From Caldilineales bacterium (lineage in GTDB: Bacteria > Chloroflexota > Anaerolineae > J102), in NCBI GenBank assembly GCA_019695115.1, contig JAIBAP010000002.1, positions 62,001 through 126,000 of the forward strand: 64,000 nucleotides of DNA. Direction: 5' to 3'. Both the position numbers and the translations under genes were made by a program. Shown one piece after another: positions 1 to 61,425 of this stretch. The notes under the pieces were generated by a model, which saw only the letters and a program-made list of their open reading frames with translations, was not told the origin of the DNA and did not search any database. Numbering within the stretch: position 1 is the first letter of the stretch; each line of letters opens with the position of its first letter.

Positions 1-2837
1 ATGCCGGCCGCCCGGCGCATCACAGCCAGACTGAATTGCTGCCACTGCCACGGCCAGAAGAGCCGATAGATCCTGTCGGCGGCTGGGGTGGCGGTCGCCA
101 TGGCGGTGGCAGTGGGGGTGGGCGTGAGGGTGGGGGTGGCGCCATCGTCGGCCAGCTCAGACGACGGTGTCGATACGGGCGTGGCAGATAGTGACTCTGA
201 CGTGGGCGAAGGCGTGGCCGTGGCTGTGGCCTCCAGTTCGGGTGTGGCCGTTACGGTGGGCGTGATCCCATCTGGCGTCTCCGGCGTGGCTGTTGGGGTG
301 AGGTCGCTCGCGGAGAGGTCGCTCGCGGAGAGGTCGCTCGCGGAGAGGTCGCTCGCGGATTGGCTGGTTGGGACGGCATCCTGCAGGCCAGCGACGACGC
401 GAGTGGGGGTGCGCGTGGGCCGGCGGGTGGGGGTGCGGGTGGGGGTGGGGGTTTTGGTCGGCCGGCGGGTGGGGGTGGCGGTGGCGCCGGGCGTGGCGGT
501 GGGCGTCTTGGTGGGTCGGCGGGTGGGGGTGACGGTCGAGGTGGCCCCGATGGCGCGGGTGGGTGTGGCGGTCGAGGTGGCGCCAATGGTGCGGGTGGGT
601 GTGGCGGTCGGGGTGACCAGGGTGAAGCGAACCGTGAGTATCGGGTGCTGGTCGGCAGGTGAGGCTTCGCGCGAGGCGAGGCTGTATTGCACCGCATCGG
701 CGCTGGTGGCGGCCAGCACCACGCCGAAATTCGCCGCCGGGTTGCTCTGCCAGCCGCGCGCAGCCGCGGTCACATCGAACGTCGTCCACCCAGTCGCAGC
801 CAGGGTGGCGGACGAAAGGGCCGTGCTCTCGCGGTCGCCCGCACCGGCAGCCAGCGGCGCCGACCACGGTTGACCCGTTTTGGCGATGTTGGCGGTCGCC
901 TGCGTCTCCTCCCAGGCGCGCAGCAGCCGATAGGCCGCGGCTGTCAACGAGTTGGCGTTGGTGCGGCCAGCCGTGAAGACTGCCAGTTCGGCCTGGGTGA
1001 TGGCGGCATTGGCCGGCAGGGCGCTGAGATCGAAGCGGAACAGAGCCGGCATCACGCCCGGACGTAAGGCGGCGATGGTGCTGCCGCCGTAGTTGGTATC
1101 GGGGTTCCAGGAACTGAGGTAGGTGTCGGCCACCGGCGCCACGACCAGGGTCCCCGAGGTGTTGGGCGTGGCTGTGCGGGTGGCGGTGGCCGTCACCGTC
1201 ACGGTTGGCGACGGCGTCGAGGTAGGCACGATGAGCGACACGCTGACCAGGCGCGGATCGGCGTCGATGGTGATGCTCACCGAAGCGTTGCGGCTTCCGT
1301 CCAGGTCGCCGGCCCCGCCATCGGCGATGTACTGCACCCCGCCGAGCTTGTCGACCACATTCAAAGCCCCGCCGGCCGCGGGCAGAGGAAAGGCTTGCTG
1401 TTTGGAGGTCTCGGTGGTCACCCAGATGACGGTCTTGATCTGCTCGTTGACAAGGAAGTCATAGCCCATGACATCGCTGGCATAGTCGCGGCGCACCGTG
1501 CGGAATTGGGCGCCGGCCAGGTGGGTCGTCATGGCTTGAAAAGCTGTGTAGCTGAGTTTGGGCGTCAGGTCTGCGCGCAGCAGACCGTGCGAGTAAGGGA
1601 GCCAGGCCTCATCCACGGCCTGCAGCCAGATGATGGGGTAAATGTCGGTGGACATGGACTGGACGTACAGCTCCCAGACCAGGCGGGCCGTGAGATTCTC
1701 GCTCAGCTTGGCGTCTTGCTCTGGGTCATCGGCGTCGGTGGGATGGCCAAGCTCGGTGATCAGGAGCGGCTTGCTGACGCCATAGGCGGCCGCTATCTGG
1801 CGCAGACGCTCGGCTTTGCGCACGACGCCGTTGTCGTAGCGGTCCGACGTCCTCCACGACCCCTTCCAGCCTTCGAAGTAGTGGAAGTTGATCATGTCGA
1901 AGTAGGGGCCGCCGCCCGCGGCCAGGATGTCATTGAGGAAGTTGGGGTCGAAGAGACCGATAGGGGTGAACCAATCGAACGCCAGCCCGGTGAGGAGCAC
2001 TTTCACCTGGGGGTTGGCAGCTTTCATGGCCGGGTAGACTTCCTTGAGCATGGCGGCATAGGCGGCGCCGCCGGCGCCGGCGGCGTGATTGGGATGGGTG
2101 GCTCCCCAACACCCACCCAGCCACGGATAGTTGACCGGGTCGCCGTTGTCGGCTTCGTTGTACAGTGACCAGTGCAATACATAGTAAGGCGCCACACTGT
2201 AACGAGCGACCGCCGCTTTGAGGAAGTTGGCCAGGCTGGTGCGGCCCGCTGGATAGAGCGGACCGCAGCGCAAGAGCGCAGTCCAGGAAGGGTTGCCGTT
2301 GACCGTGATCGTGACCCGGTATCCCAGGTTGACAAGATTGGTCAGACGGGCGTCGAGCCTCGACCAGTCGTACTGCCCCGGTTGTCGTTCGATCTCATCC
2401 CACTGGATGTGGATCTGCGCCCATTTGGCGCCGGCAGTCGCCAACTGCGGGCCGCCCACCGCTTGATCGCCGGCGAAGACGAAATAGGCGCCAAAGGGAC
2501 CGGCAGCGGAGGGCGGTGGGGGGGTGGGGGTGCGGGTGGCAGTGGCCTGTGGGGTGGGTGTGGCGGTGAGCTGGCGGGTGGGGGTGCGGGTGGCCGTAGC
2601 CCGGCGGGTGGGGGTGCGGGTAGGGGTGCGGGTGGCCGTGGGCCGCCTGGTGGGCGTGCGGGTGGGGGTGCTGGTGGCCTGGATCGCCGCCGGGGCGGAG
2701 GGATCACCTCCCCCAGATTGCCCGTTGCTGCGCGTGAATGCCCCAAAGGCCAGCCAGAGCACGAGCAGCAGGCCAACGCCAAGTAGCAGGCGGCGGATGC
2801 TCTGAAGAAATGTCGAACGATCGGGAGAGAGAAACAT
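1..2837 (-). CDS. Partial secreted/membrane-anchored clan GH-A-like glycoside hydrolase with DNRLRE/CBM96-like module
   Basis: The reading frame starts at ATG 2837 and is open to the left edge, so about 945 residues are visible and the C-terminus is missing. A basic N-terminus and a hydrophobic segment (about residues 18-35) suggest a signal anchor. A Thr-Pro-Arg linker follows (about 55-105), then a TIM-barrel-like domain with YNEAD near residue 226 and LLITELGHP near 361. These fit the acid/base and nucleophile glutamates of clan GH-A (seen motifs, inferred function). Residues about 565-735 read like a DNRLRE/CBM96 module (VVAPVADTYLSSWNP..., ALFRFDLSAL). A second Thr-Pro-rich region contains four tandem DLSAS units. 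It probably acts on polysaccharide outside the cell; the substrate is unknown. The start lies 23 bp downstream of a MITE-like repeat. Confidence 0.7.
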   Translation of the reverse strand, partial: MFLSPDRSTFLQSIRRLLLGVGLLLVLWLAFGAFTRSNGQSGGGDPSAPAAIQATSTPTRTPTRRPTATRTPTRTPTRRATATRTPTRQLTATPTPQATATRTPTPPPPSAAGPFGAYFVFAGDQAVGGPQLATAGAKWAQIHIQWDEIERQPGQYDWSRLDARLTNLVNLGYRVTITVNGNPSWTALLRCGPLYPAGRTSLANFLKAAVARYSVAPYYVLHWSLYNEADNGDPVNYPWLGGCWGATHPNHAAGAGGAAYAAMLKEVYPAMKAANPQVKVLLTGLAFDWFTPIGLFDPNFLNDILAAGGGPYFDMINFHYFEGWKGSWRTSDRYDNGVVRKAERLRQIAAAYGVSKPLLITELGHPTDADDPEQDAKLSENLTARLVWELYVQSMSTDIYPIIWLQAVDEAWLPYSHGLLRADLTPKLSYTAFQAMTTHLAGAQFRTVRRDYASDVMGYDFLVNEQIKTVIWVTTETSKQQAFPLPAAGGALNVVDKLGGVQYIADGGAGDLDGSRNASVSITIDADPRLVSVSLIVPTSTPSPTVTVTATATRTATPNTSGTLVVAPVADTYLSSWNPDTNYGGSTIAALRPGVMPALFRFDLSALPANAAITQAELAVFTAGRTNANSLTAAAYRLLRAWEETQATANIAKTGQPWSAPLAAGAGDRESTALSSATLAATGWTTFDVTAAARGWQSNPAANFGVVLAATSADAVQYSLASREASPADQHPILTVRFTLVTPTATPTRTIGATSTATPTRAIGATSTVTPTRRPTKTPTATPGATATPTRRPTKTPTPTRTPTRRPTRTPTRVVAGLQDAVPTSQSASDLSASDLSASDLSASDLTPTATPETPDGITPTVTATPELEATATATPSPTSESLSATPVSTPSSELADDGATPTLTPTPTATAMATATPAADRIYRLFWPWQWQQFSLAVMRRAAG
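301..360. repeat. Four tandem 15-bp coding repeats (SASDL units)
   Basis: Four consecutive copies of a 15-bp unit (aggtcgctcgcggag; the last copy differs in its final base) lie inside the Thr-Pro-rich C-terminal part of the partial glycoside-hydrolase-like gene. They encode repeated Ser-Ala-Ser-Asp-Leu in the minus-strand frame. The near identity of the copies suggests recent expansion by slippage. Confidence 0.9.
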
Positions 2838-2859: not shown

Positions 2860-2993
2860 TATTGATCGCTAGGTTGATTTGTTATGAAGGTCGTGAACCG
2901 TGAAGCGTGAAACGTGAGAAAACGTCGGCGATTTTCACGCATCACGCATCACGTTTCAGGACCGAGTATCATTTCTTTATCTAGCCATCTATA
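2860..2993 (-). repeat. MITE-like 135-bp repeat, copy A (inverted relative to copy B)
   Basis: Read on the minus strand, this 134-bp stretch matches 20074-20208 with about seven differences. Its ends form an imperfect terminal inverted repeat (TATAGATGGCTAG at one end, TATTGATCGCTAG read inward from the other; 11 of 13 match). The interior holds 7-bp units of the cgtgatg/cgtgaaa type in opposed orientation, so a long hairpin can form. It lies between the glycerate kinase gene and the partial glycoside hydrolase gene, in the probable promoter region of the latter. Confidence 0.85.
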
Positions 2994-3056
2994 ATTGACC
3001 CAGCGTGAAAGAGAGCGAGGACTATAGCACCCGCGGCTGCGCCCGGCAAACCGGCG

Positions 3057-5989: not shown

Positions 5990-6004
5990 GTTTGGGAGTG
6001 GTTG

Positions 6005-6058
6005 CGTGGTGCGTGTTCCGTGTTCCGTATCGTTACGCAACACGCAACACGCAACACG
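6005..6058. repeat. Heptamer-array hairpin with TCGT loop, copy 1
   Basis: Two 25-bp arms (6005-6029 and 6034-6058), made of 7-bp units (cgtgttc on one side, acgcaac/cacgcaa on the other), pair with three mismatches around a TCGT tetraloop. A 32-bp part of it (6023-6054) is identical to 9802-9833. It lies between the M24 peptidase and the G5/3D gene. Confidence 0.85.
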
Positions 6059-6068
6059 CCCTACCATC

Positions 6069-7302: not shown

Positions 7303-7470
7303 TGAATGGGAATTGCGGATTGCGGATCTGGCGTCAGTTATTGGTGATTGGTTATTGCATCTGTGACCTGCGACCTGCCACCTGCGACTTGCGATCCTTC
7401 GTTTCACTCAGGACAAGCTCTGCCACCTGCGATCCTTCGTTTCACTCAGGACAGGCTCTGCCACCTGCGA
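7303..7470. repeat. Compound heptamer array with a 38-bp tandem duplication
   Basis: The junction between the methyltransferase and peptidase genes is filled with 7-bp-period units (gaattgc/ggattgc, gttattg, ctgcgac/ctgccac/cttgcga). Inside it, 7391-7428 and 7429-7466 are two back-to-back 38-bp copies with one mismatch, each beginning gcgatccttcgtttcactca. No coding sequence is visible. Confidence 0.85.
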
Positions 7471-9771: not shown

Positions 9772-9783
9772 TAGGAATAATTA

Positions 9784-9900
9784 CGTATTGCATGTTGCGT
9801 ATTCCGTATCGTTACGCAACACGCAACACGCAATACGCAATACGCAATACGTAATGCGCAATACGGAATAACCAATAACCAATAACCAATAACCAACCAA
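9784..9900. repeat. Heptamer-array hairpin with TCGT loop, copy 2, plus caataac array
   Basis: Arms 9784-9808 and 9813-9837 pair with three mismatches around the same TCGT loop as the element at 6005. Acgcaat units continue to about 9866, followed by four caataac units to about 9900. The array fills the junction upstream of tyrS, which has no visible Shine-Dalgarno sequence. Confidence 0.85.
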
Positions 9901-18847: not shown

Positions 18848-20086
18848 GTGCTCGCCGACCGCTACACCCGCATCGCCCTCGAACGCCTGCACCGCCTGGG
18901 CGCGCAGGCCAGCAGCCGGGCCTGGGCCGAAGTCGAAGACGCCGAGACCGAGCGCCAGGCGGCCGGCCGGGCCAGACAGCGCGTCCTCGACGACCTGCCC
19001 GCCTGGCTCGACCGGCTGGAGCAGCAGGCGACGGCCAACGGCGTGCGCGTCCATCGCGCTGCCGACTTCCAGGCCGCCAACCGCATCATCGTCGGCGCCC
19101 TGCAAGCCGCCAAGCAGACGGCCGCCGTCTGCAACCATTCGCCGCTGCACGATGAGATCGCCCTGAGCCGGGCGCTGGCCGCCAACGAGCTCGCGCTCAC
19201 GCGCCTCCACCCCGGCGACCATCTGCTGGAACTGGTGGGCGGGCAGGCGGGGCATCCGGCCTGGCCGGCGGCCCACCTGCGGGTCGAAGACATCAGCGCC
19301 GCCATGCAATCCCGGTGGCGGATCCCGGCCACGCTCGACCCCGACAACCTGGCGGCCACCACCTTCAACCGCACCCGGCCGGCGCTGCTGGGGGCCAAAG
19401 CCGCCATCCTGGGTCTGCACTTCGCCGACGCCTCCGCCGGCGCCCTCGTCTGCCTGGACAACGACGGCCACAACGCCAGCCTGGTGGCACTGGCCGACCA
19501 TCTCATCTGTGTGATGGGCATCGAGCAGGTGGCGGCCGAGGCGGCCGACCTGGATGTGCTGGTGCAGGTCTTTGCTCGCAGCGCCTGGGGCCGGCCCATG
19601 CCGGGTTACATCACCCCGGTTGTGCGCCCCGACCCGACCGCTGGCCCCAAGACCATCGACCTCATCCTCCTGGACAACGGCCGGGGCCGGGTGCTGGCGG
19701 CGGGGATGGCCGAGGCGCTGCGCTGCATCGGTTGCGGGGCCTGCCACACCATTTGCCCGGTCTACGCCCAGATCGGCGGCCAGGGGTACGGCGGTTTCGC
19801 CCACACCGGCCCCATCGGCGCCATCCTCAACCCGCTGCTGGCGCGACCGGGCCTGGCCGTGGAGCAGCCTTTCCTCAGCACTGGCTGTGGGGCCTGCCGG
19901 CCGGTGTGCCCGGTGGATATCGATTTGCCCGGCCTGCTGCACCAACAGCGTTGGCGCATAGCTCGATCAACCGTTTCGTGGCGAGAACGGACGGCCTTCT
20001 GGCTGTGGCAGCGCTTGCTTGGCCGCCCGGCTCTGTTCACAGCCTTTCTGCGCCTGGCCCGGCGTCTGGTTCTTATAGATGGCTAG
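18848..20086 (+). CDS. lutB: LutB-like iron-sulfur L-lactate oxidation protein
   Basis: The 412-residue protein starts with GTG directly after lutA. The N-terminal LUD-type domain is recognised by NHSPLHDEIALSRAL, LLELVGG...VEDIS and an AILGLHFADASAGALV stretch. Two ferredoxin-like cluster motifs follow: CIGCGACHTICPVY (about residue 296) and CGACRPVCPVDIDLP (about 348), with GYGGFAHTGPIGAIL between them as in LutB. The complex should pass electrons from lactate oxidation to the respiratory chain. The stop codon TAG lies inside a 135-bp repeat, so the original C-terminus may have been changed by that insertion. Confidence 0.87.
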   Translation: MLADRYTRIALERLHRLGAQASSRAWAEVEDAETERQAAGRARQRVLDDLPAWLDRLEQQATANGVRVHRAADFQAANRIIVGALQAAKQTAAVCNHSPLHDEIALSRALAANELALTRLHPGDHLLELVGGQAGHPAWPAAHLRVEDISAAMQSRWRIPATLDPDNLAATTFNRTRPALLGAKAAILGLHFADASAGALVCLDNDGHNASLVALADHLICVMGIEQVAAEAADLDVLVQVFARSAWGRPMPGYITPVVRPDPTAGPKTIDLILLDNGRGRVLAAGMAEALRCIGCGACHTICPVYAQIGGQGYGGFAHTGPIGAILNPLLARPGLAVEQPFLSTGCGACRPVCPVDIDLPGLLHQQRWRIARSTVSWRERTAFWLWQRLLGRPALFTAFLRLARRLVLIDG

Positions 20087-20208
20087 CCAAAGAAATGATA
20101 CTCGCTCCTGAAACGTGATGCGTGATGCGTGAAAATCGCCGACGTTTTCTCACGTTTCACGGTTCACGGTTTACGACCTTCGTAACAAATCAACCTAGCG
20201 GTCAATAA
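20074..20208 (+). repeat. MITE-like 135-bp repeat, copy B
   Basis: This copy matches the reverse complement of 2860-2993 with about seven differences. It fills the space between two convergent genes and supplies both stop codons: TAG of lutB at 20084-20086 and TGA of the dinB-like gene at 20204-20202. The terminal inverted repeats and the heptamer arms (cgtgatg units against cacgttt/cacggtt units) are retained. Confidence 0.85.
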
Positions 20209-26777: not shown

Positions 26778-26779
26778 GG

Positions 26780-27050
26780 TTGGGGATTGGGGATTGGGGA
26801 TGGCGAATTGCGGATTGCGAAGTGCGAATTGCGGATTGCGAAATGGATCGATCACGAATGGCACGAATGGACGAATGGCGCGAATAGAGCCAGTAGTCAG
26901 TAATCAGTAGTCAGTAATCAGTAATCAGTAATCAGTAGTCAGTAATCGGTAATCAGTAATCGGTAATCAGTTACCAGTGACCACCTGCCACTTGCGACCT
27001 GCGACCTGCGACCTGCGACTTGCGACCTGCGACCTGCGACCTGCCGCCTT
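26780..27050. repeat. Large compound heptamer array between ftsA and ftsQ
   Basis: About 270 bp of successive 7-bp-period blocks fill this junction: ggattgg/ggggatt, gaattgc/ggattgc, a short cacgaatgg-type block, a run of about fourteen cagtaat/cagtagt/cggtaat units, then a run of ctgcgac/cttgcga units. All blocks are direct repeats. No gene is visible in this stretch. Confidence 0.9.
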
Positions 27051-27051
27051 C

Positions 27052-29047: not shown

Positions 29048-29049
29048 GG

Positions 29050-29135
29050 GGGGTGTGAAACGGGAGGCGTGTTCCGTGTTCCGTGAAACGTGAAACGTGA
29101 GGCGTGAGGCGTGAGGCGTGAGGCGGTGCGAGTTG
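29050..29135. repeat. cgtgaaa/cgtgagg/cgtgttc heptamer array
   Basis: The murB-ddl junction carries about eleven tandem 7-bp units that all share cgtg (cgtgttc, cgtgaaa, cgtgagg). The same units occur at 35420-35515 and in the MITE-like copies. Confidence 0.9.
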
Positions 29136-29187
29136 CGGAGTGAGCACGCCCACGTGCGAACGGCTGCGCAGGACGACTTCGGTTCGG

Positions 29188-30147: not shown

Positions 30148-30350
30148 AGGGTAACAGTGGTCAGTAGTCAGTGGTCAGTAATCAGTGGTTAGTGATCAGT
30201 GATCAGAATCAGGTAACAATCAACAATCAACAATCAACAATCAACAATCAACGGCGCACATGCTACTGGACTACCAGTCTACCGATCTACTTGTCTACCT
30301 ATCTACCTATCTACCTGTCTACCTGTCTACTTGTCTACTTATCTACTTCC
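30148..30350. repeat. Compound array: cagtggt and caacaat heptamers, then an 8-bp ctac array
   Basis: The murC-murB gap holds about eight cagtggt/cagtaat/gatcagt units, five caacaat units (30216-30250) and then an 8-bp-period run of ctacctat/ctacctgt/ctacttgt units (about 30278-30346). The change from 7 to 8 bp is unique in this window. No gene is seen here. Confidence 0.88.
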
Positions 30351-31750
30351 CTCAACAAGGCTGGGGCAAGGTCGGTGGCGTTGCCGGCGCTGAGGATGAC
30401 GACGAGGCTGCCGGGGCCGGCGGACGCCTTCAGGGTCTGGAGGGTGGCGGCAAGGTCGCCGGTGGGCAGGGCCTGGGGATGGCGGCTGGCGGCGGCGATT
30501 TGGGCGGGGGTGATGCCGGGATCGACCGGCTCGCGGGCGGCGTAGATGTCGGTGATCAGAACGTGGTCGGCGGCGGCGAAGGCGCCGTCGAAGCGGTCGA
30601 GCAGGGCGCGGGTGCGGCTGTAGGTGTGGGGCTGGTAGACGGCCCAGAGTTCGCGGTGGGGATAGGCGGCGCGGGCCGCGGCCAGGGTGACGCGGATTTC
30701 GGTGGGGTGGTGGGCGTAGTCATCCACCACCAGCACGCCGTTGGCTTCGCCCCGGACTTCGAAGCGCCGTCCTGCCCCGCGGAAGTCGGCCAGCAGGGGG
30801 GCGGCCGTGGCGATGGGGAGGCCGGAGAGGGCGGCGGCGACCAGGGCGGCGGCGCTGTTGAGGGCGTTGTGCAGGCCGGGGACGGCCACGCGCACGGTGT
30901 GCAGGGTGCCATCGGGGCCGCACAGACCGTAGGTCGTCTGGTGTTGTTCGATCTCGATGTTGCGGACGGCCCAGGCCGCCCCAGAGCGATTGCCAAAGCC
31001 ATGCCAGTTCGAAGCGGGGTGTTCGGCGGCCAGGCGGCGCAGGGTGGGGTCGTCGTGGCAGTAGATGATGTGGCCGCCGGGCTGCAGGCGGGCGATGAAG
31101 CGACGGAACGAGTCCTCGTAGGCGTCGGCGGTGGGGAAGCAGTCGGGGTGGTCCCAGTCGATGTTGGTCAGGACGATGAGGTGGGGGGCCAGGCCGAGGA
31201 AGGCGTGGTCATACTCGTCGGCTTCGATCACGAAATAGGGGCCGGCGCCGAGTGCGCTTGCACCCAGATCGGGCAGGGTGCTGCCGATGATGTAGCCGGG
31301 CGAGCGACCGCTGCGGGTCAGTACATGGGTGATCATGCCGGTGGTCGTCGTTTTGCCATGCGTTCCGGCCACGGCGATGACCCTGCGCCCGCCGGTGAGG
31401 GGGCCGAGCAGGTCCTGGCGTTTGACCACCGGGATGCCGGCCGCCTGGGCGGCGAGGAGTTCGGGGTTCTGGGCCGGGACAGCCGACGAGATGAGGACCA
31501 GGTCGGGTAGGGCCGGGCCGGTGGGGCGGCGCAGGTGGGCGGCGTCATGGCCCAGGCTGACGCCGGCGCCCGCCTGCGCTAATGCCGCCATCCGGGCCGA
31601 GGCCGACTGATCGCTGCCGCTGACCTGAAAGCCCATCTCCAGCAGGACGGCGGCGATGGGCGCCAGACCGCTGCCGCCGATTCCGATCAGATGGAAGCGG
31701 TGGCGCCGGCGTTGGTCAGGCGGGAGGGCGAAGAGCGAGGGCCAGGACAT
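30335..31750 (-). CDS. murC: UDP-N-acetylmuramate--L-alanine ligase MurC
   Basis: The 471-residue Mur ligase adds L-Ala to UDP-MurNAc. The N-terminal nucleotide motif HLIGIGGSGLAPIA (about 20), the ATP-binding AVAGTHGKTTTTGMI (about 120), FVIEADEYDHAFL and ILTNIDWDHPD (about 180-205) and the C-terminal DDYAHHPTEIRVTLAAAR are diagnostic. ATG 31750 opens directly before a 45-bp palindrome. An in-frame extension upstream reads into the palindrome and a different gene, so it was not used. The last codons lie next to the 8-bp ctac array. Confidence 0.95.
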   Translation of the reverse strand: MSWPSLFALPPDQRRRHRFHLIGIGGSGLAPIAAVLLEMGFQVSGSDQSASARMAALAQAGAGVSLGHDAAHLRRPTGPALPDLVLISSAVPAQNPELLAAQAAGIPVVKRQDLLGPLTGGRRVIAVAGTHGKTTTTGMITHVLTRSGRSPGYIIGSTLPDLGASALGAGPYFVIEADEYDHAFLGLAPHLIVLTNIDWDHPDCFPTADAYEDSFRRFIARLQPGGHIIYCHDDPTLRRLAAEHPASNWHGFGNRSGAAWAVRNIEIEQHQTTYGLCGPDGTLHTVRVAVPGLHNALNSAAALVAAALSGLPIATAAPLLADFRGAGRRFEVRGEANGVLVVDDYAHHPTEIRVTLAAARAAYPHRELWAVYQPHTYSRTRALLDRFDGAFAAADHVLITDIYAAREPVDPGITPAQIAAASRHPQALPTGDLAATLQTLKASAGPGSLVVILSAGNATDLAPALLREVDK

Positions 31751-31768
31751 GGTGGGGATTGGAGATTG

Positions 31769-31813
31769 GAGATCGGAGATTGGAGATTGGTCCAATCTCC
31801 AATCTCCGATCTC
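31769..31813. repeat. 45-bp perfect palindrome made of gattgga heptamers
   Basis: Arms 31769-31790 and 31792-31813 are exact reverse complements around one base, each composed of 7-bp units (gattgga and relatives). The right arm ends one base before the stop codon of the upstream membrane protein gene, and the left arm ends 18 bp before the murC ATG. The central unpaired loop would be small, so in RNA the tip must open. Confidence 0.92.
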
Positions 31814-31814
31814 T

Positions 31815-33080: not shown

Positions 33081-34303
33081 GGGGGGCGTGTCGTGGTTTT
33101 GGCCAGGGCGATGAGGGCATCGGCGAGGCGGTCGGCGGCGTCGGGTCGGGCCAGCGCGGCGCTGGCCTGGCCGAGGGCGTGCAGGCGGTCGGGGTGGTCG
33201 AAGAGCTCGCGCACGGTGGGGAGCAGTTGGCCGGGAAGGTCGGCGTCGTCGATGACGATGGCGGCGTCGCGGTCGGCCAGATAGCGGGCGTTGGGGAGTT
33301 GGTGTTGGCCGGAGATGGGCAAAGGGACGAGGATGGCCGGCAGGCCGAGGGCGGGGAATTCGCCCAGGGTGGAGGCGCCGGCGCGGGTGATGGCAAGGTC
33401 GGCGGCGCAGAGTGCGGCCGTCATCTCCTCGTGCAGGTAGGGGAAGCTACGGTAGCGGCGGCTCTGCTCGGAGCCAAGTCCGGCAACCCGCCTCTGTGCT
33501 GCTTCCCGATCGACTTCGCCCGTGATGTGGATCACTTGCGCCAGGGCCAGCAGGTCGGGCAAGACGCTGGCGGTAGCCTGGTTGATCGAACGCGAGCCGC
33601 GCGAGCCGCCGAAAATGAGCAGGGTGGGTTGGGTCGGGTCGAGGTCGAAACGCTGTCGGGCTTCTTCTTTGCTCAGGCTGCGCCGGCGCAGTTGGCGACG
33701 CACCGGGTAGCCGGTGACGATGGCCTTGCCGGGGAAGAAGGCCGTCGTCTCGGCGAAGCTGACCGCAATCTGGGTGGCGTATCCGGCCAGCCGCTGGACG
33801 GCCAGGCCAGGGGTGACATCGGGCAGGTAGATGAGGATGGGCAGGCGCTGGCGGTGGGCGGCCCAGACGAGCGGGGCGCAGACATAGCCGCCGGTGACAA
33901 AGACGACGTCGGGGCGCCAGTCGTGCAGGAGCCGCCGGGCCTGCCAGGCTCCGCGGGCCAGCCGCAAGCTGTTGCGGGCCAGTTGCAGGGGGTTGCGGAT
34001 GCGCAACTGGCCGGCCGAGATGGCCACGAAGTCGATGCCGGCGTTGGCCGCCATCGTCGCTTCGATGCCATCGGTGGTGCCGGCGTAACAGATGGCGAGT
34101 GGGGACTGGCCGGCTCTAGCGGCGGCTGCGGGCGTAGCCGGTTGTTCGGGGACGGGCGGATTACTGGGATGGACGGATAGGGATGTTTCAGCGGCGGCTG
34201 CGGGCGTAGCCGGTCGTTCGCAGGCCGCGTGCAGAGCCTCCACCGTGGTCAGGATCGGATAGACGTGGCCGCCGGTTCCGCCGCCAGAGACGATCAAGCG
34301 CAT
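33077..34303 (-). CDS. murG: MurG N-acetylglucosaminyltransferase with a repeat-derived insertion
   Basis: MurG transfers GlcNAc to lipid I to give lipid II at the inner membrane. RLIVSGGGTGGHVYPIL opens the protein at ATG 34303 behind a GGAGG ribosome binding site. ISAGQLRIRN, VFVTGGYVCAP (about 150), LLIFGGSRGSRSINQA (about 240) and LAITRAGASTLGEFPALGLPAILVPLP (about 320-345) are family marks. The length (408) exceeds the usual 350-360 because of a Pro/Ala-rich insert at about residues 27-65. The insert carries two copies of the PATPAAAA stretch encoded by 25-bp repeats. The insert replaces the loop right after the GGTGGH motif. The gene overlaps ftsW by 116 bp. Confidence 0.94.
   Translation of the reverse strand: MRLIVSGGGTGGHVYPILTTVEALHAACERPATPAAAAETSLSVHPSNPPVPEQPATPAAAARAGQSPLAICYAGTTDGIEATMAANAGIDFVAISAGQLRIRNPLQLARNSLRLARGAWQARRLLHDWRPDVVFVTGGYVCAPLVWAAHRQRLPILIYLPDVTPGLAVQRLAGYATQIAVSFAETTAFFPGKAIVTGYPVRRQLRRRSLSKEEARQRFDLDPTQPTLLIFGGSRGSRSINQATASVLPDLLALAQVIHITGEVDREAAQRRVAGLGSEQSRRYRSFPYLHEEMTAALCAADLAITRAGASTLGEFPALGLPAILVPLPISGQHQLPNARYLADRDAAIVIDDADLPGQLLPTVRELFDHPDRLHALGQASAALARPDAADRLADALIALAKTTTRPP
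34118..34214. repeat. Two direct 25-bp repeats within murG, the second also in ftsW
   Basis: Identical 25-bp copies lie at 34118-34142 and 34190-34214, 72 bp apart (24 codons). On the minus strand the murG frame reads PATPAAAA. In the ftsW frame the second copy encodes TGYARSRR and leads straight into the TGA stop at 34190-34188. The DNA between the copies resembles the ggatggg heptamer array found upstream of mraY. Confidence 0.9.
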
Positions 34304-35414
34304 CGAAGCGAATGCCTCCTCCCCCGCGTGAGATGTTGAGCAAGATGCCGACGGCGCCCAGGTTGATGACCGTGCTGGAGCCGCCATAGCTGAAAAACGG
34401 CAGGGGTAAGCCAGAGAGAGGGAAGGTGGCCGTGATCACGGCCATGTTGATGAAGGCTTGTGCTACGAGCCAGGTGGTGATGCCAAATGCAAGCAGGGCG
34501 CCAAAGCTATCCCTTGCAGCCATGGCGATGCGGGTGCCGCGGTAGGCGAAGAAGAGGAACAGCGCCAGGACCAGGAGCGTGCCCACCAGCCCCAGTTCTT
34601 CGCCCACGACGGCGAAGATGCTGTCGGAATGGACTGCCGGCAGGCCGCCGGGCAACTTGTGGACGCTGTTGGCCAGCCCCTGACCGAAGACGCCGCCTTC
34701 GACCAGGGCATACAGAGCCTCGCGCAGATGGAAGTTCTGCGTCTGGATGGGGTTGCCGATCGAGGAGATGAAGATGGTCATCCGCTCGTGAGCGTGCGGC
34801 GACAGGATGATGACGGCGGCAAAGGTGACGGCCCCCAGCGCCGTGAGGATGACCATCTGGACGAGGTTGGCGCCGGCAATGAAGAACATCGCTACCGCCG
34901 TCACGCTGATCATCATGGCTGTGTCGATGTCGGGCTGGGCCAGGATCAGTCCGACCAGCAGGCCCAAGAGGACGGCGAAGGGCACCAGGCTGATGCTGAC
35001 GTTGCGCGCCATCGAGCCTTTGGAACTGAGCCAGGCGGCGATGTAGATGATGATGGCGAGTTTGGCGATTTCGGACGGTTGCACCGAACCGTCGAAGAAC
35101 TGGCGCCGGGCGCCGAATTTGGCCGCGCCAAATACCAACACCAGCAGCAGCAGCAAGAGGGTGATGGCCATGATCGGCAAGGCCCACTTCTGCCAGAGGC
35201 GATAGTCGATGTTGAGGGCCACGACCAACGCCCCCGCCCCAATGCCTGTCCAGATCAGCTGCCGTATGAAGAAATAGAGCGGGTTTTCGGTGTTGACATA
35301 GGCGAAGGCATAGGAGGCGCTGAAGACCATCACCAGGCCGAATCCAACCAGCGCCGCCATCAGCACCAGCAAGGGATAATCGAAGGTGGGGAGGAGGGGT
35401 TTGTTGCGGGTCAT
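34188..35414 (-). CDS. ftsW: Lipid II polymerase / flippase-family protein FtsW
   Basis: A SEDS-family membrane glycosyltransferase of about 408 residues, from ATG 35414 (ribosome binding site AGGAGA). About ten membrane helices are visible. Motifs include FSASYAFAY near the start, LAQPDIDTAMM (about 190; the Asp aligns with the catalytic region of SEDS proteins), GGLPAVHSDSIFAVVGEELGLVG (about 260-283) and LPFFSYGGSSTVINLGAVGILLNIS (about 348-372). It acts with the septal PBP encoded by ftsI. The C-terminal 40 residues run into murG in another frame and end in a repeat-derived TGYARSRR. Confidence 0.94.
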   Translation of the reverse strand: MTRNKPLLPTFDYPLLVLMAALVGFGLVMVFSASYAFAYVNTENPLYFFIRQLIWTGIGAGALVVALNIDYRLWQKWALPIMAITLLLLLLVLVFGAAKFGARRQFFDGSVQPSEIAKLAIIIYIAAWLSSKGSMARNVSISLVPFAVLLGLLVGLILAQPDIDTAMMISVTAVAMFFIAGANLVQMVILTALGAVTFAAVIILSPHAHERMTIFISSIGNPIQTQNFHLREALYALVEGGVFGQGLANSVHKLPGGLPAVHSDSIFAVVGEELGLVGTLLVLALFLFFAYRGTRIAMAARDSFGALLAFGITTWLVAQAFINMAVITATFPLSGLPLPFFSYGGSSTVINLGAVGILLNISRGGGGIRFDALDRLWRRNRRPRLSDPDHGGGSARGLRTTGYARSRR

Positions 35415-35419
35415 GGGTT

Positions 35420-35515
35420 CTCCTGGGGTGTGATGCGTGGTGCGTGGTGCGTGTTCCGTGAGGCGTGAAACGTGAGGCGTGAAACGTGAGGCGTGGGGTG
35501 TGAGGCGTGGGGTGT
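35420..35515. repeat. cgtg-type heptamer array upstream of ftsW
   Basis: Some 90 bp of 7-bp units (cgtggtg, cgtgttc, cgtgagg, cgtgaaa, cgtgggg) fill the murD-ftsW junction. They are the same unit family as at 29050-29135. Confidence 0.9.
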
Positions 35516-37100: not shown

Positions 37101-38102
37101 TCAAAGCAGCGCCAGGGCGATGCCGAACATGGCCGATAGCAGGCCGATCAGAAAAAAGCGCTGGGTGACGTGTGTTTCCGACCAGCCGAGCAACTCGAAA
37201 TGATGGTGCAGGGGACTCATCTTGAAAGGCCGCAGGTCGCGGCCCAGAAAACGGCGGCTGAGCTTGGCCGAAAGCACCTGGATGATCACCGACAGCGTTT
37301 CGGCCACGAAGGGAAAGCCGATGATCGGCAACAGCAGCCATTGCCCGGTCATCAGGGCCACCACGGCCAGGGTGGCGCCCAGGGCCATGGCGCCGATGTC
37401 GCCCATGAACATTTGGGCGGGGTAGGCGTTGAACCACAAAAAAGCGAAGGTGGCGCCAACGATGGTGAAACAGAGCGCCGCCAGCCACACCTGGCCCTGG
37501 AGGAAGGCAATGACGCCATAAGCCACATAGCACACGGCCGCAATCGAACCGGCCAGCCCATCCAGCCCGTCGGTGATGTTTACGGCGTTGGCCATGGCGG
37601 TGATGATGAAGATGGCAATGGGGATCCACATGCCGTCGATATCGATCCGTTCGGGCACGGTGGGCAGGGCGATGCTGTGCAAATCCAGGCCGAAATACAT
37701 GATCAGGGCCAGGATGGCGGCCAGCGCCACCTGGGCGGGGAACTTCGACCGTGCCAGCAGGCCCTGGGCGTCGCCGCGCCGCCGCCTGATGCCGGCCAGG
37801 TCGTCCAGCATCCCCAAGCCGCCGAAACTGACCAGCGCCAACACCGGCACCAGCACCGAGGCGCCGATGACGGTGAGACCGAAGAGATTGGCCAGGTTGA
37901 GGCCGAGGGTGATGAACACGACCGGGAGGATGATGAGGATGCCGCCCATCGTCGGCGTGCCTGCCTTGACCTGATGCGACTGGGGGCCTTCCATGCGGAT
38001 ACGCTTGCCCAACTGTTGGCGTTTGAGCAAGCGGATCAGCGGTGTGCCCCAGATCACGGCCAGGAGGAAGGCCAGGGCGCCGAGGGTGAGCGAGTAGGAC
38101 AT
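37101..38102 (-). CDS. mraY: Phospho-N-acetylmuramoyl-pentapeptide-transferase MraY
   Basis: The membrane enzyme of about 333 residues makes lipid I from UDP-MurNAc-pentapeptide and undecaprenyl phosphate. HQVKAGTPTMGGILIILPVV (about residues 42-61), LGMLDDLAGIRRRR (about 100; the DD pair), NAVNITDGLDGLAGSIA (about 180-196), MFMGDIGAMALGA (about 238) and the cytoplasmic HHHFELLGWSETHVTQRF (about 297-315) are present, with about ten helices. ATG 38102 directly follows the ggatggg heptamer array, and no Shine-Dalgarno sequence is visible. Confidence 0.97.
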   Translation of the reverse strand: MSYSLTLGALAFLLAVIWGTPLIRLLKRQQLGKRIRMEGPQSHQVKAGTPTMGGILIILPVVFITLGLNLANLFGLTVIGASVLVPVLALVSFGGLGMLDDLAGIRRRRGDAQGLLARSKFPAQVALAAILALIMYFGLDLHSIALPTVPERIDIDGMWIPIAIFIITAMANAVNITDGLDGLAGSIAAVCYVAYGVIAFLQGQVWLAALCFTIVGATFAFLWFNAYPAQMFMGDIGAMALGATLAVVALMTGQWLLLPIIGFPFVAETLSVIIQVLSAKLSRRFLGRDLRPFKMSPLHHHFELLGWSETHVTQRFFLIGLLSAMFGIALALL

Positions 38103-38180
38103 GGGTGGATGGGGATGGGCGGATGGGGATGGGCGGATGAGGGTGGGCGGATGGCTGGGATGGGCGGATGGGGATGGGGC
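38103..38180. repeat. ggatggg/gatgggc heptamer array between murF and mraY
   Basis: This 78-bp stretch alternates ggatggg and gatgggc units (14-bp double period) with a few variants. It forms the complete leader between the murF stop and the mraY start. Confidence 0.88.
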
Positions 38181-38182
38181 GG

Positions 38183-46014: not shown

Positions 46015-47520
46015 ATGGCTGCCACCGTGTGCCCCTACCTCGGCCTGCTCGAAAACCCCGAGGCGCACCTCAACTATCCGAGCTTCGAAAATCGTTGCTA
46101 TGCCACGGTGGCGCGCGAGGCGATCCCGCTGTCCGAACAGGCGGTGTTCTGTTTGGGGGGGCAGAGCCGGAGCTGCCCGCGTTACATGGCCGTTCATGGC
46201 GCGCCGGCCACGGCCGCCATCGACGCCCCCCTGCCACCGCCCTATACCCCTGCCGCGCCCACGCCCGAACCTGTCCCGGTCTACGTCCCCGGCCCCTACG
46301 CCAGTCCGGCGCCCTATGGCCGGCGTGAGCGCGACTGGTCGCTGGCCATCATCCTGGGCGGCCTGCTGTTGGGCGTCTTCTTGTGCACGGGCGGGCTGGC
46401 GGCCTATTTTAGCCTGCGCGCCCTCTTCACCACCGCCCTGCCCGCCACACCCACGCCCTTCCCGGTCGTCATCCTGGCCACCCCCACGCCTGCCCTCATC
46501 GCCAGCCCCACGCCCGTCCCCATCATCCTCCTCACCGCCACCCCCACCCCCCTGCCGGCGGCGCCGCCCACCGATCTGCCCCCGGTCGAACCTCCTGCCC
46601 CCACCCCCACCCCCGTACTCGATTTCAGCACCCCCACCCCCGACATCGACTCCGTCGCCACGCCGACGCCCTTCCCCTTCGACACCCCCACCCCACGGCC
46701 ATCGCCCACCCAGTCGCCGCAAGCCACCTTCACCCCCACGGTCTTCGCCACGACCGGGCCAACCTTGACCCCCCTGGCCGTCGTCATCACCTTCACCGCC
46801 TCCAAACTGGTCATCTTCCCTGCCGAATGCGTCACCCTGACCTGGAGCGTACAAAACGCCCGCGAAGTCCGTTTTGGCGACACCGCCGTCGCCGGCACAG
46901 GCAGCCGTCAGGACTGTCCGACCAAGACCACCGTCTATGAACTGAACGTGACCGACAACAACGGCGTGGTGAGCAAGCGCACCCTGACGATTACCGTCAC
47001 CGCCGGCACCCCTTCGGTGACGCCCACGGCCACGATCAGCCCCACCCCCTGGCCGACAGCCACCCCCACCCCCACCCTGACCGAGACCCCCACCAAGACC
47101 GCCACCCCCACCCCCACCCTCACCCCCACCCATACGGCTACGCCCACCCGCCTGCCCACCGCCACACCGACGGTCGTCCTGGTGGACTGGAACGCGCATC
47201 CCGACAACTACTTTGGCGGCAGCTCGGACGTGGGCATCACCCTCACCAACCGCGGGAATCAGGTCGACTCGCTCAACCTGACACTATTCGCCACCAATCT
47301 GCCATCTGACTGGCAGGTGGTGGTGTGCAACAGTGTCGGCGCCTGCAGCCCGACGAACACCAGCAGCTCGCAGGTGGGGGCGAACGGCGGCCAGGATGCC
47401 GTGACGGTGCGTTTCACCATTCCCACCGGCAGTTCAGGCGCCGCTTCGGTGATCCTGCGCGCCACCTCCGTCCGCGATGGCAGCTACAGCTTCGGCATCA
47501 ACATCACCGTGACGCGTTAG
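46015..47520 (+). CDS. CPYLGL-type membrane protein with Thr-Pro linkers and extracellular beta domains
   Basis: The 501-residue protein starts with a Cys-rich module (CPYLGLLENPEAHLNYPS at about 6-23, then a Cys at about 28, CLGG and SRSCPRY by about 57). I recall this module as common in Anaerolineae proteins, and it probably binds a metal. A cytoplasmic Pro-rich stretch leads to one membrane helix (about 110-135), then very Thr-Pro-rich linkers around two beta domains (about 258-325 and 385-500). The second resembles a bacterial alpha-2-macroglobulin/NPCBM-like adhesion fold only in general. The likely topology is N-in, C-out. It heads a plus-strand unit with a PP2C phosphatase (14 bp) and a P-loop protein, hinting at signalling across the membrane. 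Confidence 0.6.
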   Translation: MAATVCPYLGLLENPEAHLNYPSFENRCYATVAREAIPLSEQAVFCLGGQSRSCPRYMAVHGAPATAAIDAPLPPPYTPAAPTPEPVPVYVPGPYASPAPYGRRERDWSLAIILGGLLLGVFLCTGGLAAYFSLRALFTTALPATPTPFPVVILATPTPALIASPTPVPIILLTATPTPLPAAPPTDLPPVEPPAPTPTPVLDFSTPTPDIDSVATPTPFPFDTPTPRPSPTQSPQATFTPTVFATTGPTLTPLAVVITFTASKLVIFPAECVTLTWSVQNAREVRFGDTAVAGTGSRQDCPTKTTVYELNVTDNNGVVSKRTLTITVTAGTPSVTPTATISPTPWPTATPTPTLTETPTKTATPTPTLTPTHTATPTRLPTATPTVVLVDWNAHPDNYFGGSSDVGITLTNRGNQVDSLNLTLFATNLPSDWQVVVCNSVGACSPTNTSSSQVGANGGQDAVTVRFTIPTGSSGAASVILRATSVRDGSYSFGINITVTR

Positions 47521-55988: not shown

Positions 55989-57775
55989 CCAGCCCGCAAG
56001 CTCTCTCCGAAGACCTATTCCAGCACATGCTGGAAAGCCTGGATGCAGGCGCTGACCGCCAGGCGGTTGCGGCGCGTCTGGCTGCCGCTCCGGCCGAGCT
56101 GCGGACACTGGTCGAGATGGCGCAGCAGCTGCGGGCGGCGGCATCGCCGCCGCCCGATCCCGGCCCGGCCCTGGCGCGGGCGCGGCAGCGCCTCCTGGCT
56201 TCGCTGCCCGCGCCGCTGCCCGCGCCGCTGCCGGCGCCGCTGCCGGCGCCCGAACCTGCCCCGGCGAAGGCCCCGCGCCCGGCCCCGTCCCGACCCCGTC
56301 CGCCGGCGCCTTCCTGGTGGGAATGGCTGCAGGGCGCCTTGCGGTTGCCGCCGGCGCCGGCATGGGCGACGGTTGCCGCCATCCTCCTGCTGGTGCTGGG
56401 GCTGACGGCCTTCACCACCGTGCGCGTCTCGGCAGCGGCGCTGCCGGGTCAACCCTTGTATGTGGTCAAGCGCGCCGCCGAGAATGTCACCCTGTTCCTG
56501 ACTCGCGACCCCAAGACGAGGGAACAGCTGGTCGAGAGCCTCGAAGACCGGCGCCGCGACGAGGTCAACACCTTGCTCGGTCGCGGCCTGGAAGAAGAGA
56601 TCGAGGTCACGGGTGAGCTGATCGGCCGCGAGGGTTCGGGCTGGCGCGTGGGCGAGTGGTTGGTGGTGGGCAGCCAGGAAGCCTTCGCCGGTCTGCCGGC
56701 GGGGGCCGTCGTCCGCATCAGCGGTATGACCACCATCGATGGCCGCATCCGGGCGGATTCTGTGTGGATCGTCAGCCTGCCCACGCCTTCGCCCACCCCC
56801 GTCCCCACCGCTACACCCGCACCGCGCCCCCGACCCACGCGACAGCCGGCCCCCAACATCCAGCCGACGCTCCGACCGCCCACCCTTTCGCCTCGCCCCA
56901 CCCGCACCCCCCGCCCCACCGCCACCACACAGCCCAGCCCCACGCCGGCGCCGGCCACCCTCGTCCTGGTGGGCGTTTTCCGCCAGCACAGCGGCGGGCT
57001 GATCACCATCGATGACCAGGTCTTCCGTCTGGCGCCGGCGCTCGACGTGAGCGATCTGAAGATCGGCAGCCAGGTGCGCGTCTACTATCGGCTGCTGGCC
57101 GGCGGCGATAAGCTCGCCCTTGCCATCGACCTCCTCGCCACCGCCACCACCACGCCGCTCCCCGCCCCCATCACCATCAACGGCGAAATCACCGGGCTGG
57201 ACGGCGGGCGCATCGTCGTCGGTGGCTACAGCTTCCGCCTCACCGCTCAGACGAGCATCGATGGCGACCCGGCCGTGGGCAAGCAGGCCACCGTCAGCGG
57301 GCACTACGACGCCGATGGCGACCTGATCGCCGATGCGATCACCGTGCGCGAGTGGCCGTCGATCGACTTCGGCGGCGTCATCACCTCGATCCAGGGCGGT
57401 CACCTCACCATCGATGGGCCTTATGGCGTCTGGATCGTTGACATCGGCGGGGCCGTGGTCACTGGTGCACCCGTCGTTGGCGCCACGGTGGAGGGGCATG
57501 GCCGCCAACGACCTGACGGCCTCATCATCGCCGAATCGCTGATCGTCGTCTCCTCGCCCGCCACCCCCACCTCCCCGCCCACAGCCACCCCAAGCGCCAC
57601 GCCGCCGCCTGCCGCCACCCCCACCCCCACCGAACCGGTCCCGACGGACACCCCCGTTCCACCCACCGACACCCCGATCCCGCCCACCGATACCCCCATC
57701 CCGCCGACCGACACCCCCATCCCGCCCACCGAGCCGCCGCCCCCTACGACCGAACCTACCCAAGAGGCCGGCTAG
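55985..57775 (+). CDS. Putative anti-sigma factor with DUF5667-like and DUF5666-like domains
   Basis: The 596-residue protein begins with a cytoplasmic helical part (about 1-55), then a Pro-Ala-Leu repeat linker, a membrane helix (about 125-150) and a DUF5667-like stretch (LPGQPLYVVKRAAENVTLFL, about 156-175). Several small beta domains of the DUF5666 type (about 195-260, 320-375, 395-455, 460-515) are separated by Thr-Pro linkers. The C-terminus has tandem TDTPIPP units. It overlaps the sigma gene by 4 nt, so the cytoplasmic end probably binds the sigma factor. The anti-sigma role is inferred from context and layout. Confidence 0.7.
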   Translation: MTSPQALSEDLFQHMLESLDAGADRQAVAARLAAAPAELRTLVEMAQQLRAAASPPPDPGPALARARQRLLASLPAPLPAPLPAPLPAPEPAPAKAPRPAPSRPRPPAPSWWEWLQGALRLPPAPAWATVAAILLLVLGLTAFTTVRVSAAALPGQPLYVVKRAAENVTLFLTRDPKTREQLVESLEDRRRDEVNTLLGRGLEEEIEVTGELIGREGSGWRVGEWLVVGSQEAFAGLPAGAVVRISGMTTIDGRIRADSVWIVSLPTPSPTPVPTATPAPRPRPTRQPAPNIQPTLRPPTLSPRPTRTPRPTATTQPSPTPAPATLVLVGVFRQHSGGLITIDDQVFRLAPALDVSDLKIGSQVRVYYRLLAGGDKLALAIDLLATATTTPLPAPITINGEITGLDGGRIVVGGYSFRLTAQTSIDGDPAVGKQATVSGHYDADGDLIADAITVREWPSIDFGGVITSIQGGHLTIDGPYGVWIVDIGGAVVTGAPVVGATVEGHGRQRPDGLIIAESLIVVSSPATPTSPPTATPSATPPPAATPTPTEPVPTDTPVPPTDTPIPPTDTPIPPTDTPIPPTEPPPPTTEPTQEAG

Positions 57776-61286: not shown

Positions 61287-61287
61287 G

Positions 61288-61425
61288 TGGAGATTGGAGA
61301 TTGGAGATTGGTTATTGGTTATTGGAGATTTCGCTCGATAGCCAATAACCAATAACCAATAACCACGACCTATCACGCAACACGCAATACGCAACACACA
61401 CTACGCACCACGCAAACACCGAATA
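61288..61425. repeat. Compound heptamer array with 16-bp stem hairpin
   Basis: Units gattgga, then gttattg; 61310-61325 pairs perfectly with 61342-61357 (caataac units) around a 16-nt loop. Acgcaac/acgcaat and acgcacc units follow. It lies between yidC and jag, far from the other arrays (all within 2.8-38 kb). Confidence 0.9.

What the first reader, a model, noticed from the sequence alone, without database searches (positions are those of the whole stretch)
26780..27050. Family of 7-bp-period intergenic arrays at about a dozen gene junctions
Arrays at 2889-2960, 6001-6060, 7303-7470, 9779-9900, 20104-20175, 26780-27050, 29050-29135, 30148-30250, 31755-31813, 35420-35515, 38103-38180 and 61288-61425 have different unit sequences (cagtaat, acgcaac, ctgcgac, cgtgaaa, caataac, caacaat, gattgga, ggatggg) but nearly all the same 7-bp period. 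They avoid genes and reach directly up to start or stop codons. Heptanucleotide short tandemly repeated repetitive (STRR) sequences are known from filamentous cyanobacteria; a shared period with many unit sequences points to a slippage or copying process that prefers 7 bp, or to a protein that reads every 7 bp. From 43 to 61 kb there is none.
Basis: seen in the sequence. Interest (0 to 1): 0.66.

Follow-up and report, generated by a model that had tools for sequence, protein, structure and literature searches.

The report
Polar seven-base repeat arrays between genes
The gaps between genes in this Chloroflexota bacterium are filled with about a thousand short arrays of seven-base repeats, and whatever their sequence their G/T-rich strand points away from the nearest gene, a rule also reported for different heptamer repeats in Xanthomonas and Nostoc, which suggests one unexplained DNA-copying process working in several phyla.

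Summary
Eleven of the twelve claimed sites show a 7-bp period; the twelfth (38103-38180) is a 14-bp (6+8) array. The genome (5.99 Mb, nearest named relatives Caldilineae MAGs, Chloroflexota) carries 221 exact lag-7 runs per Mb, against 15 at lag 8 and about 1 or none at lags 4, 5, 10 and 11. Of 78 arrays in 400 kb, 76 are intergenic; about 1,050 are extrapolated genome-wide. The array-free 43-61 kb is not significant (P=0.07).

New here is a polarity rule. The G/T (keto) strand leaves the nearest gene 5'->3' at both start-side (42:1) and stop-side (44:9) edges. In gaps holding both orientations, keto precedes amino in 32 of 35. Non-array gaps lack this skew. Rehm 2015 reported the same geometry for G-quadruplex heptamers in Xanthomonas and Nostoc, but only 10 of 220 arrays here carry a G4 motif. 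Units form a discrete vocabulary, duplicate locally and recur genome-wide. A same-genus relative lacks them; other Chloroflexota have them patchily.

Reverse transcriptase, Ku, MutL loss and Y1 transposase do not track the trait. Best reading: STRR-like heptamer arrays laid by a polar copying process that prefers 7 bp. The enzyme is unknown.

The parts
2860..2994 (+). 135-bp dispersed hairpin element built on CGTGAAN heptamers; inverted copy at 20073-20207; >=12 copies genome-wide
   Evidence: 95% inverted pair; 12 matches to its 51-bp core, control 0; fold z -6.6
20073..20207 (-). second copy of the 135-bp hairpin element
5997..6065 (+). convergent pair: keto array (GCGTGGT/CCGTGTT) 6001-6030 then amino array (ACGCAAC) 6031-6064
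   Evidence: RNA fold z -5.1
7303..7470 (+). ATTGCGG / ATTGGTG stretch, then CTGCGAC array, with two embedded 38-bp units carrying a REP-like module TCCTTCGTTTCACTCAGGACARGCTCTG
9775..9900 (+). convergent composite: GCGTATT (keto) then ACGCAAT/ACGCAAC and AATAACC (amino)
26778..26845 (+). keto array starting at the edge of the minus-strand gene whose start side is at 26777: TTGGGGA (Nostoc-type GGGGATT) then TTGCGGA/TTGCGAA
26888..26971 (+). CAGTAAT/CAGTAGT array (weak keto/amino bias)
26981..27051 (-). amino array ACCTGCG reaching the stop-side edge of the FtsQ-type gene (27052)
29050..29128 (+). keto array CGTGTTC -> CGTGAAA -> CGTGAGG in blocks with phase kept; start side of ddl
30151..30252 (+). 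CAGTGGT array followed by CAACAAT array; start side of murB
30263..30346 (-). period-8 array; on the sense strand ACAAGTAG/ACAGGTAG, overlapping the stop codon of the gene at 30335-31750 (MurC by position)
31752..31814 (+). convergent pair TTGGAGA / TCTCCAA forming a near-perfect hairpin
   Evidence: z -6.0
35428..35513 (+). keto array GCGTGGT / CGTGAGG / CGTGAAA, start side of the minus-strand gene at 34188-35414
38101..38178 (+). 14-bp-period array GGATGGGCGGATGGG (6+8), not a true 7-bp array; purely keto on +
61287..61415 (+). convergent composite: keto TTGGAGA/TTGGTTA (61287-61330), amino ATAACCA (61335-61370), amino CACGCAA (61374-61415), between yidC and jag genes
   Evidence: z -6.7

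Best explanation
What it is: a lineage-specific, genome-wide population of heptanucleotide tandem arrays of the STRR kind (about 1,050 per genome by extrapolation), confined to gene junctions and made of a few unit superfamilies (CGTGNNN, ATTGNNN, CAGTNNT, CARGTSG). How it most likely works (inferred): arrays are laid down and extended by a DNA-level copying process with polarity. A 3' end carrying the G/T-rich strand is extended away from the gene edge into the gap, re-aligning by 7 nt (sometimes 8) on a 3-5 nt core. Units then duplicate locally. Blocks spread between arrays that share a core. Fold-back of the G/T strand, or extension from both sides of a gap, gives the convergent keto-then-amino pairs. 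Arrays survive between genes because insertions of 7n bp inside genes would usually destroy them. Shown: period preference, confinement to gaps, polarity at both gene ends and in all gene orientations, local duplication, shared vocabulary, near-absence from a same-genus relative. Inferred: 3'-end extension, block copying, fold-back, near-neutrality. Unknown: the enzyme.
For: Period. Confinement. Polarity, counted for arrays within 20 bp of one gene edge and more than 40 bp from the other: start side 42:1, stop side 44:9, convergent gaps 11:1, divergent gaps 7:0; over all arrays the keto 5' side is nearer a gene in 154 of 203. Order keto-then-amino: 19 of 19 mixed gaps in the first 800 kb (P about 10^-7 by permuting order) and 32 of 35 in 1.17 Mb. 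The skew is absent in array-free gaps and in the same-genus genome G001. Adjacent units differ by 1.71 bases against 2.6 for distant units, so duplication is local; CGTG arrays use nine suffixes for nearly all units. Insertion: gene order is kept in five relatives while most of the array-bearing junctions are longer here, e.g. ftsQ to next gene 274 bp against 30-43 bp. G001 has 3.2 lag-7 runs per Mb. Same geometry in Xanthomonas and Nostoc for other units (PMC4692102).
Against: No enzyme was found: reverse transcriptase (8 of 13 array-bearing genomes against 6 of 11 array-poor), Ku (1 of 24), MutL (24 of 24) and Y1 transposase (9 of 13 against 6 of 11) do not separate the two groups. There is no supporting age gradient along arrays: gene-proximal halves are slightly more uniform (0.159 against 0.176, p 0.02), which distal growth does not predict. 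Polarity is unclear in G205 (4:5) and the sample in G103 is small (12:3). Keto/amino labels are weak for CAGTAAT. Selection on transcripts is not excluded.
Confidence: 0.42

Rival explanations
1. Ordinary replication slippage with selection on the transcript. Arrays arise anywhere between genes in either orientation; those kept have an A/C-rich (G-poor, unstructured) strand as 5' leader and a G/U-rich strand after the stop codon, so the polarity is selective, not mechanistic.
For: Start-side polarity is the cleanest (42:1). Array-bearing leaders are C/A-rich (C 0.41, G 0.18). Arrays are somewhat commoner between co-directional genes. MacGregor 2015 proposed a translational role for TAACTGA repeats just upstream of starts (PMC4679880).
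Against: Stop-side polarity is as strong in convergent gaps (11:1), where no downstream gene needs protection from premature termination, as in co-directional gaps (33:8). Array-free 3' flanks are C-rich, not G/T-rich. It does not explain why 7 bp, nor the shared vocabulary.
Confidence: 0.25
2. Structural RNA or DNA function: convergent arrays form hairpins (terminators, mRNA-end protection or cruciforms), kept in register by selection.
For: Convergent window arrays fold far better than shuffles (z -6.6, -5.1, -4.8, -6.0, -6.7). By my count from the listing, 12 of 19 mixed gaps pair the same superfamily, against about 6 expected.
Against: Several single-orientation arrays do not fold better than shuffles (26778-26880 z -0.4, 26976-27051 z -1.1, 29048-29140 z -1.2, 38101-38182 z +2.0), yet obey the polarity. 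A hairpin needs no keto-first order. No Rfam match.
Confidence: 0.15
3. A sequence-reading protein (DNA- or RNA-binding, one module per 7 bases) selects for the arrays.
For: Discrete vocabulary with conserved 3-5 nt cores.
Against: Several unrelated cores share the same period; dialects differ between genomes (CGTG suffixes ATA, GGT, AGT elsewhere); the same-genus relative has almost none while keeping the same genes.
Confidence: 0.08
4. G-quadruplex elements as proposed for Xanthomonas and Nostoc GGGNATC / GGGGANT repeats.
For: Same period, same polarity, same convergent pairs (PMC4692102); the GGGGATT unit is present at 26780-26800.
Against: Only 10 of 220 arrays here contain four G-runs of three; the polarity holds for CGTGTTC, CAGTGGT and other units without G-runs.
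Confidence: 0.04
5. Telomerase-like reverse transcriptase (DRT10-type tandem-repeat synthesis) writes the arrays.
For: DRT10 makes tandem-repeat DNA on an RNA template (PMC12632851); G/T-rich strand running outward resembles telomere polarity; G000 encodes two RVT_1 proteins.
Against: Array-bearing genomes without any RVT_1 match exist (G085, G318, G330, G181, G288) and array-poor genomes have them. The described DRT10 repeat is 9 nt and protein-primed. Many unit families would need many templates.
Confidence: 0.04

Closest known systems
Cyanobacterial STRR heptanucleotide repeats (Calothrix/Nostoc)
   Same: 7-bp tandem units, intergenic, dispersed in many copies, several unit sequences in one genome
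   Different: Here a Chloroflexota genome with many more unit families, composite arrays and a measured strand polarity; cyanobacterial chromosomes were not reanalysed here
GGGNATC / GGGGA(C/T)T repeats of Xanthomonas and Nostoc (Rehm 2015, PMC4692102)
   Same: Heptamer; intergenic; G-rich strand with its 5' side nearest an ORF whatever the ORF direction; convergent pairs in Xanthomonas; under-represented between divergent genes; GGGGATT occurs in this window
   Different: Most units here carry no G4 motif; many unrelated unit families follow the same rule
TAACTGA repeats of Beggiatoaceae, cyanobacteria, Bacteroidetes (MacGregor 2015, PMC4679880)
   Same: Heptamer arrays just upstream of start codons, amino-type strand in sense; TAACTGA is a member of the CAGTNNT family (CAGTTAT) seen here and in G103
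   Different: In Maribeggiatoa related heptamers are rarely repeated; here dozens of related units are
DRT10 reverse transcriptase / telomerase
   Same: Tandem-repeat DNA; outward G/T-rich polarity by analogy with telomeres
   Different: 9-nt protein-primed cDNA, not chromosomal arrays; RT presence does not track arrays

Membership tests
STRR-type heptanucleotide repeats | tandem units of 7 bp, preferred over other periods | tested here: met
STRR-type heptanucleotide repeats | intergenic and dispersed over the genome | tested here: met
   76 of 78 intergenic; CAACAAT doublet 70 times genome-wide, reversed control 0; GGAACACGGAACACG 183 times, control 0
STRR-type heptanucleotide repeats | shares unit sequences with cyanobacterial repeats | tested here: inconclusive
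   GGGGATT present at 26780-26800, compared with the unit printed in PMC4692102; no cyanobacterial genome was scanned
Xanthomonas/Nostoc G4 heptamers | G-rich strand's 5' side nearest an ORF irrespective of ORF direction | tested here: met
   154:49 for the keto strand; isolated edges 86:10
Xanthomonas/Nostoc G4 heptamers | able to form G-quadruplex, preference for four units | tested here: not met
   10 of 220 arrays have a G4 motif; unit-number preference not tested
Contingency (phase-variation) SSRs | unit number varies between strains and switches expression | not testable with these tools
   only one genome of the species is held
DRT10 / telomerase-like repeat synthesis | dedicated reverse transcriptase present wherever arrays are present | tested here: not met
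   no RVT_1 match in 5 of 13 array-bearing genomes
NHEJ-mediated end joining as the source of convergent pairs | Ku present | tested here: not met
   Ku absent from G000 and from all but one genome tested
Slippage from mismatch-repair loss | MutL absent | tested here: not met
   MutL in all 24 genomes

The most novel reading that the evidence does not exclude
Bacteria of several phyla share an undescribed, polar DNA end-extension process with a 7-nt (sometimes 8-nt) step, telomere-like in polarity but not reverse-transcriptase dependent, that writes G/T-rich repeats outward from gene edges; STRR, Xanthomonas G4 repeats, TAACTGA repeats and the arrays here are all its products.
Probability: 0.15. 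Interest if true: 0.85.

Novelty: new variant of a known kind. Interest (0 to 1): 0.52.

Why it matters
Heptamer repeats have been described one unit at a time, each with its own explanation (G-quadruplex, translational regulator, typing marker). This genome carries many unrelated unit families that obey one period and one strand rule, and the rule matches the published Xanthomonas/Nostoc geometry. That moves the question from 'what does this unit do' to 'what process steps by seven and knows which way the nearest gene lies', and the array-rich/array-free pair within one genus gives a direct way to look for the responsible gene.

Tried and rejected
Reverse transcriptase, Ku, MutL loss and Y1/RAYT transposase as the cause: presence does not separate array-bearing from array-poor genomes. 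G4 as a general cause: 10 of 220 arrays. Distal-growth age gradient: not seen; the gene-proximal half is marginally more uniform. Native strand bias at gene edges as the source of the polarity: absent in array-free gaps and in G001. Array-free 43-61 kb as a special domain: P=0.067. Known structured RNA: no Rfam match in the window. Nostoc plasmids as an outside test: records not held, and the BLAST of a G-rich heptamer found nothing in plasmids (low-complexity filter). Selection against Rho-type termination as the source of the stop-side rule: convergent gaps show the same rule.

Full report
The window is G000:C2:62001-126000 of a 5.99-Mb, 135-contig assembly. The closest named matches to its D-Ala-D-Ala ligase are Chloroflexota MAGs, 77% to an unclassified one and 72-75% to others including Caldilineae and Caldilineales bacteria. 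Much of the finding lies in the cell-wall (dcw) gene cluster: FtsQ-type POTRA protein, Ddl, MurB and Mur ligases; the far array at 61.3 kb lies between yidC and jag.

Observation. Eleven of the twelve listed intervals have a clear lag-7 signal (z 4.7 to 17) and essentially no coding overlap; 38103-38180 is a 14-bp (6+8) array. In 400 kb, exact lag-7 runs number 38 against 9 at lag 8, 0-1 at lags 4, 5, 6, 10 and 11, and none in shuffled sequence. In 1.17 Mb the density is 221.5 per Mb at lag 7, 15.3 at lag 8 and at most 1 at lags 4, 5, 10 and 11. Lags 6, 9 and 12 come largely from coding sequence: all 4 looser lag-6 arrays and all 3 lag-9 arrays lie in genes, and 13 of 20 lag-12 arrays, against 2 of 78 lag-7 arrays. 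Of 349 intergenic gaps of at least 60 bp in 800 kb, 59 are more than half period-7 sequence, against 0 in simulated gaps. 206 arrays in 1.17 Mb extrapolate to about 1,050 in the genome.

Unit vocabulary. Phased on their cores the units are discrete. CGTG is followed by TTC (93), AGG (88), AAA (86), GTG (56), TTG (49), ATG (37), AAG (32), GGG (17) or TTT (12), and hardly anything else. ATTG takes mainly GAG and GTT; CAGT takes mainly GGT, AAT, GTT and ATT; CAGGT/CAAGT takes CG and GG. Within arrays blocks switch with phase kept, for example CGTGTTC to CGTGAAA to CGTGAGG at 29068-29125. Adjacent units differ by 1.71 bases, units six apart by 2.63, as expected from local unit duplication. The same units recur in unrelated gaps: GGAACACGGAACACG 183 times, CAACAATCAACAAT 70 times, reversed controls 0.

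Polarity. For arrays within 20 bp of one gene edge and more than 40 bp from the other, the G/T-rich strand runs 5'->3' out of the gene at start sides 42:1 and at stop sides 44:9. Stop sides of convergent pairs give 11:1 and start sides of divergent pairs 7:0. In gaps holding both orientations the keto arrays come first: 19 of 19 in 800 kb (permutation P about 10^-7) and 32 of 35 in 1.17 Mb. The 19-gap listing shows 12 whose two arms belong to the same superfamily, against about 6 expected (my count), so inverted same-family pairs are common and fold as strong hairpins (z -4.8 to -6.7 for five convergent window sites). Several single-orientation arrays do not fold better than shuffles but obey the polarity. 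Array-free gaps and the same-genus genome G001 lack the outward G/T skew; array-bearing edges often start with a G run (24% of start sides, against 9% without arrays and 1% in G001).

Comparison. Gene order around ddl is the same in five relatives, but junctions are mostly shorter there (e.g. 30-43 bp against 274 bp after ftsQ) and mostly without arrays. One relative in another genus (L025) has a few heptamer stretches of the same families at some of these junctions. G001, in the same genus, has 3.2 lag-7 runs per Mb. In 301 Chloroflexota genomes a generic period-7 pattern hits 65, very unevenly, with G000 highest. A complete single-contig genome (G205, 5,801,598 bp; by size probably Roseiflexus sp. 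RS-1, from memory) has 111.9 lag-7 runs per Mb against 0-2.4 at lags 4-6 and 8-11, which removes assembly artefact as a general explanation. G103 has 55 per Mb at lag 7 and 45 at lag 8. Arrays of related units also occur in single loci of Blastocatellia and Anaerolineales records. Polarity in G103 is 12:3, in G205 4:5, so its generality within the phylum is open.

Known counterparts. Rehm et al. (PMC4692102) describe GGGNATC heptamers in Xanthomonas and GGGGA(C/T)T in Nostoc that lie almost always nearer the ORF on their 5' side irrespective of ORF direction. They found 70-75 convergent pairs in each Xanthomonas genome, and discuss function in terms of G-quadruplexes. The same geometry here applies to units without G runs; only 10 of 220 arrays have a G4 motif. 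MacGregor (PMC4679880) describes TAACTGA arrays just upstream of starts in Beggiatoaceae; that unit is CAGTTAT on the other strand, a member of the CAGTNNT family. The orientation she reports (TAACTGA in sense before starts) is the one predicted by the rule, though her Microcystis sample is mixed.

Mechanism. The symmetry of the rule at 5' and 3' gene ends, and in all gene contexts, is most simply read as a polarity of synthesis: the G/T strand is extended outward from gene edges, with re-alignment by 7 nt, local duplication, copying of blocks between arrays, and fold-back or two-sided extension giving convergent pairs. This step is inferred. Selection on leaders and trailers is the main rival; it explains the start side well and the stop side poorly. 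No candidate enzyme was found: RVT_1, Ku, MutL and Y1_Tnp fail to track the trait.

Limits. Gene calls come from a home-made codon-usage caller, so start positions are approximate; stop-side results do not depend on them. Keto/amino labels are nearly neutral for CAGTAAT-type units. Only 1.17 Mb of the genome could be read. Array-age gradients did not support simple distal growth. The grouping of genomes as array-bearing or array-poor rests on one generic pattern.

Noticed in passing
window 30263-30346; also G000 C1:4556-4612, C1:5734-5782, C3:56754-56795, C4:82248-82335, C6:137792-137860: Period-8 arrays of ACAAGTAG/ACAGGTAG sit on gene 3' ends and overlap the stop codon, which appears to be the TAG of the repeat itself.
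   Followed up: partly
window 2860-2994 and 20073-20207: A 135-bp palindromic element with heptamers in its stem, present in at least 12 places; its ends resemble inverted termini (GATNGCTAG), so it may be a MITE-like or terminator element.
   Followed up: partly
window 7395-7422 and 7433-7460: REP-like module TCCTTCGTTTCACTCAGGACARGCTCTG embedded in heptamer arrays; related copies in other gaps of this genome.
   Followed up: no
window 29125-29170; G000 C2:131434-131670, C3:82319-82576: Module GTGAGCACGCCCACGTGCGAACGG recurs between heptamer arrays in several gaps.
   Followed up: no
G000 C3:72330-72464, C6:137547-137632, C7:46492-46541: A second octamer family, GGGACGGA/GGGACGCA, forms long G-rich arrays in gaps.
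   Followed up: no
G000:C71:4154-4771 and C92:18284-18925: Two reverse transcriptase domains in the array-rich genome and none in its congener G001; no association across the wider sample.
   Followed up: partly
window 403-615, 2522-2679, 47060-47131, 57552-57753: Long G- or C-rich low-complexity tandem stretches with periods that are multiples of 3 or 6, probably coding.
   Followed up: no
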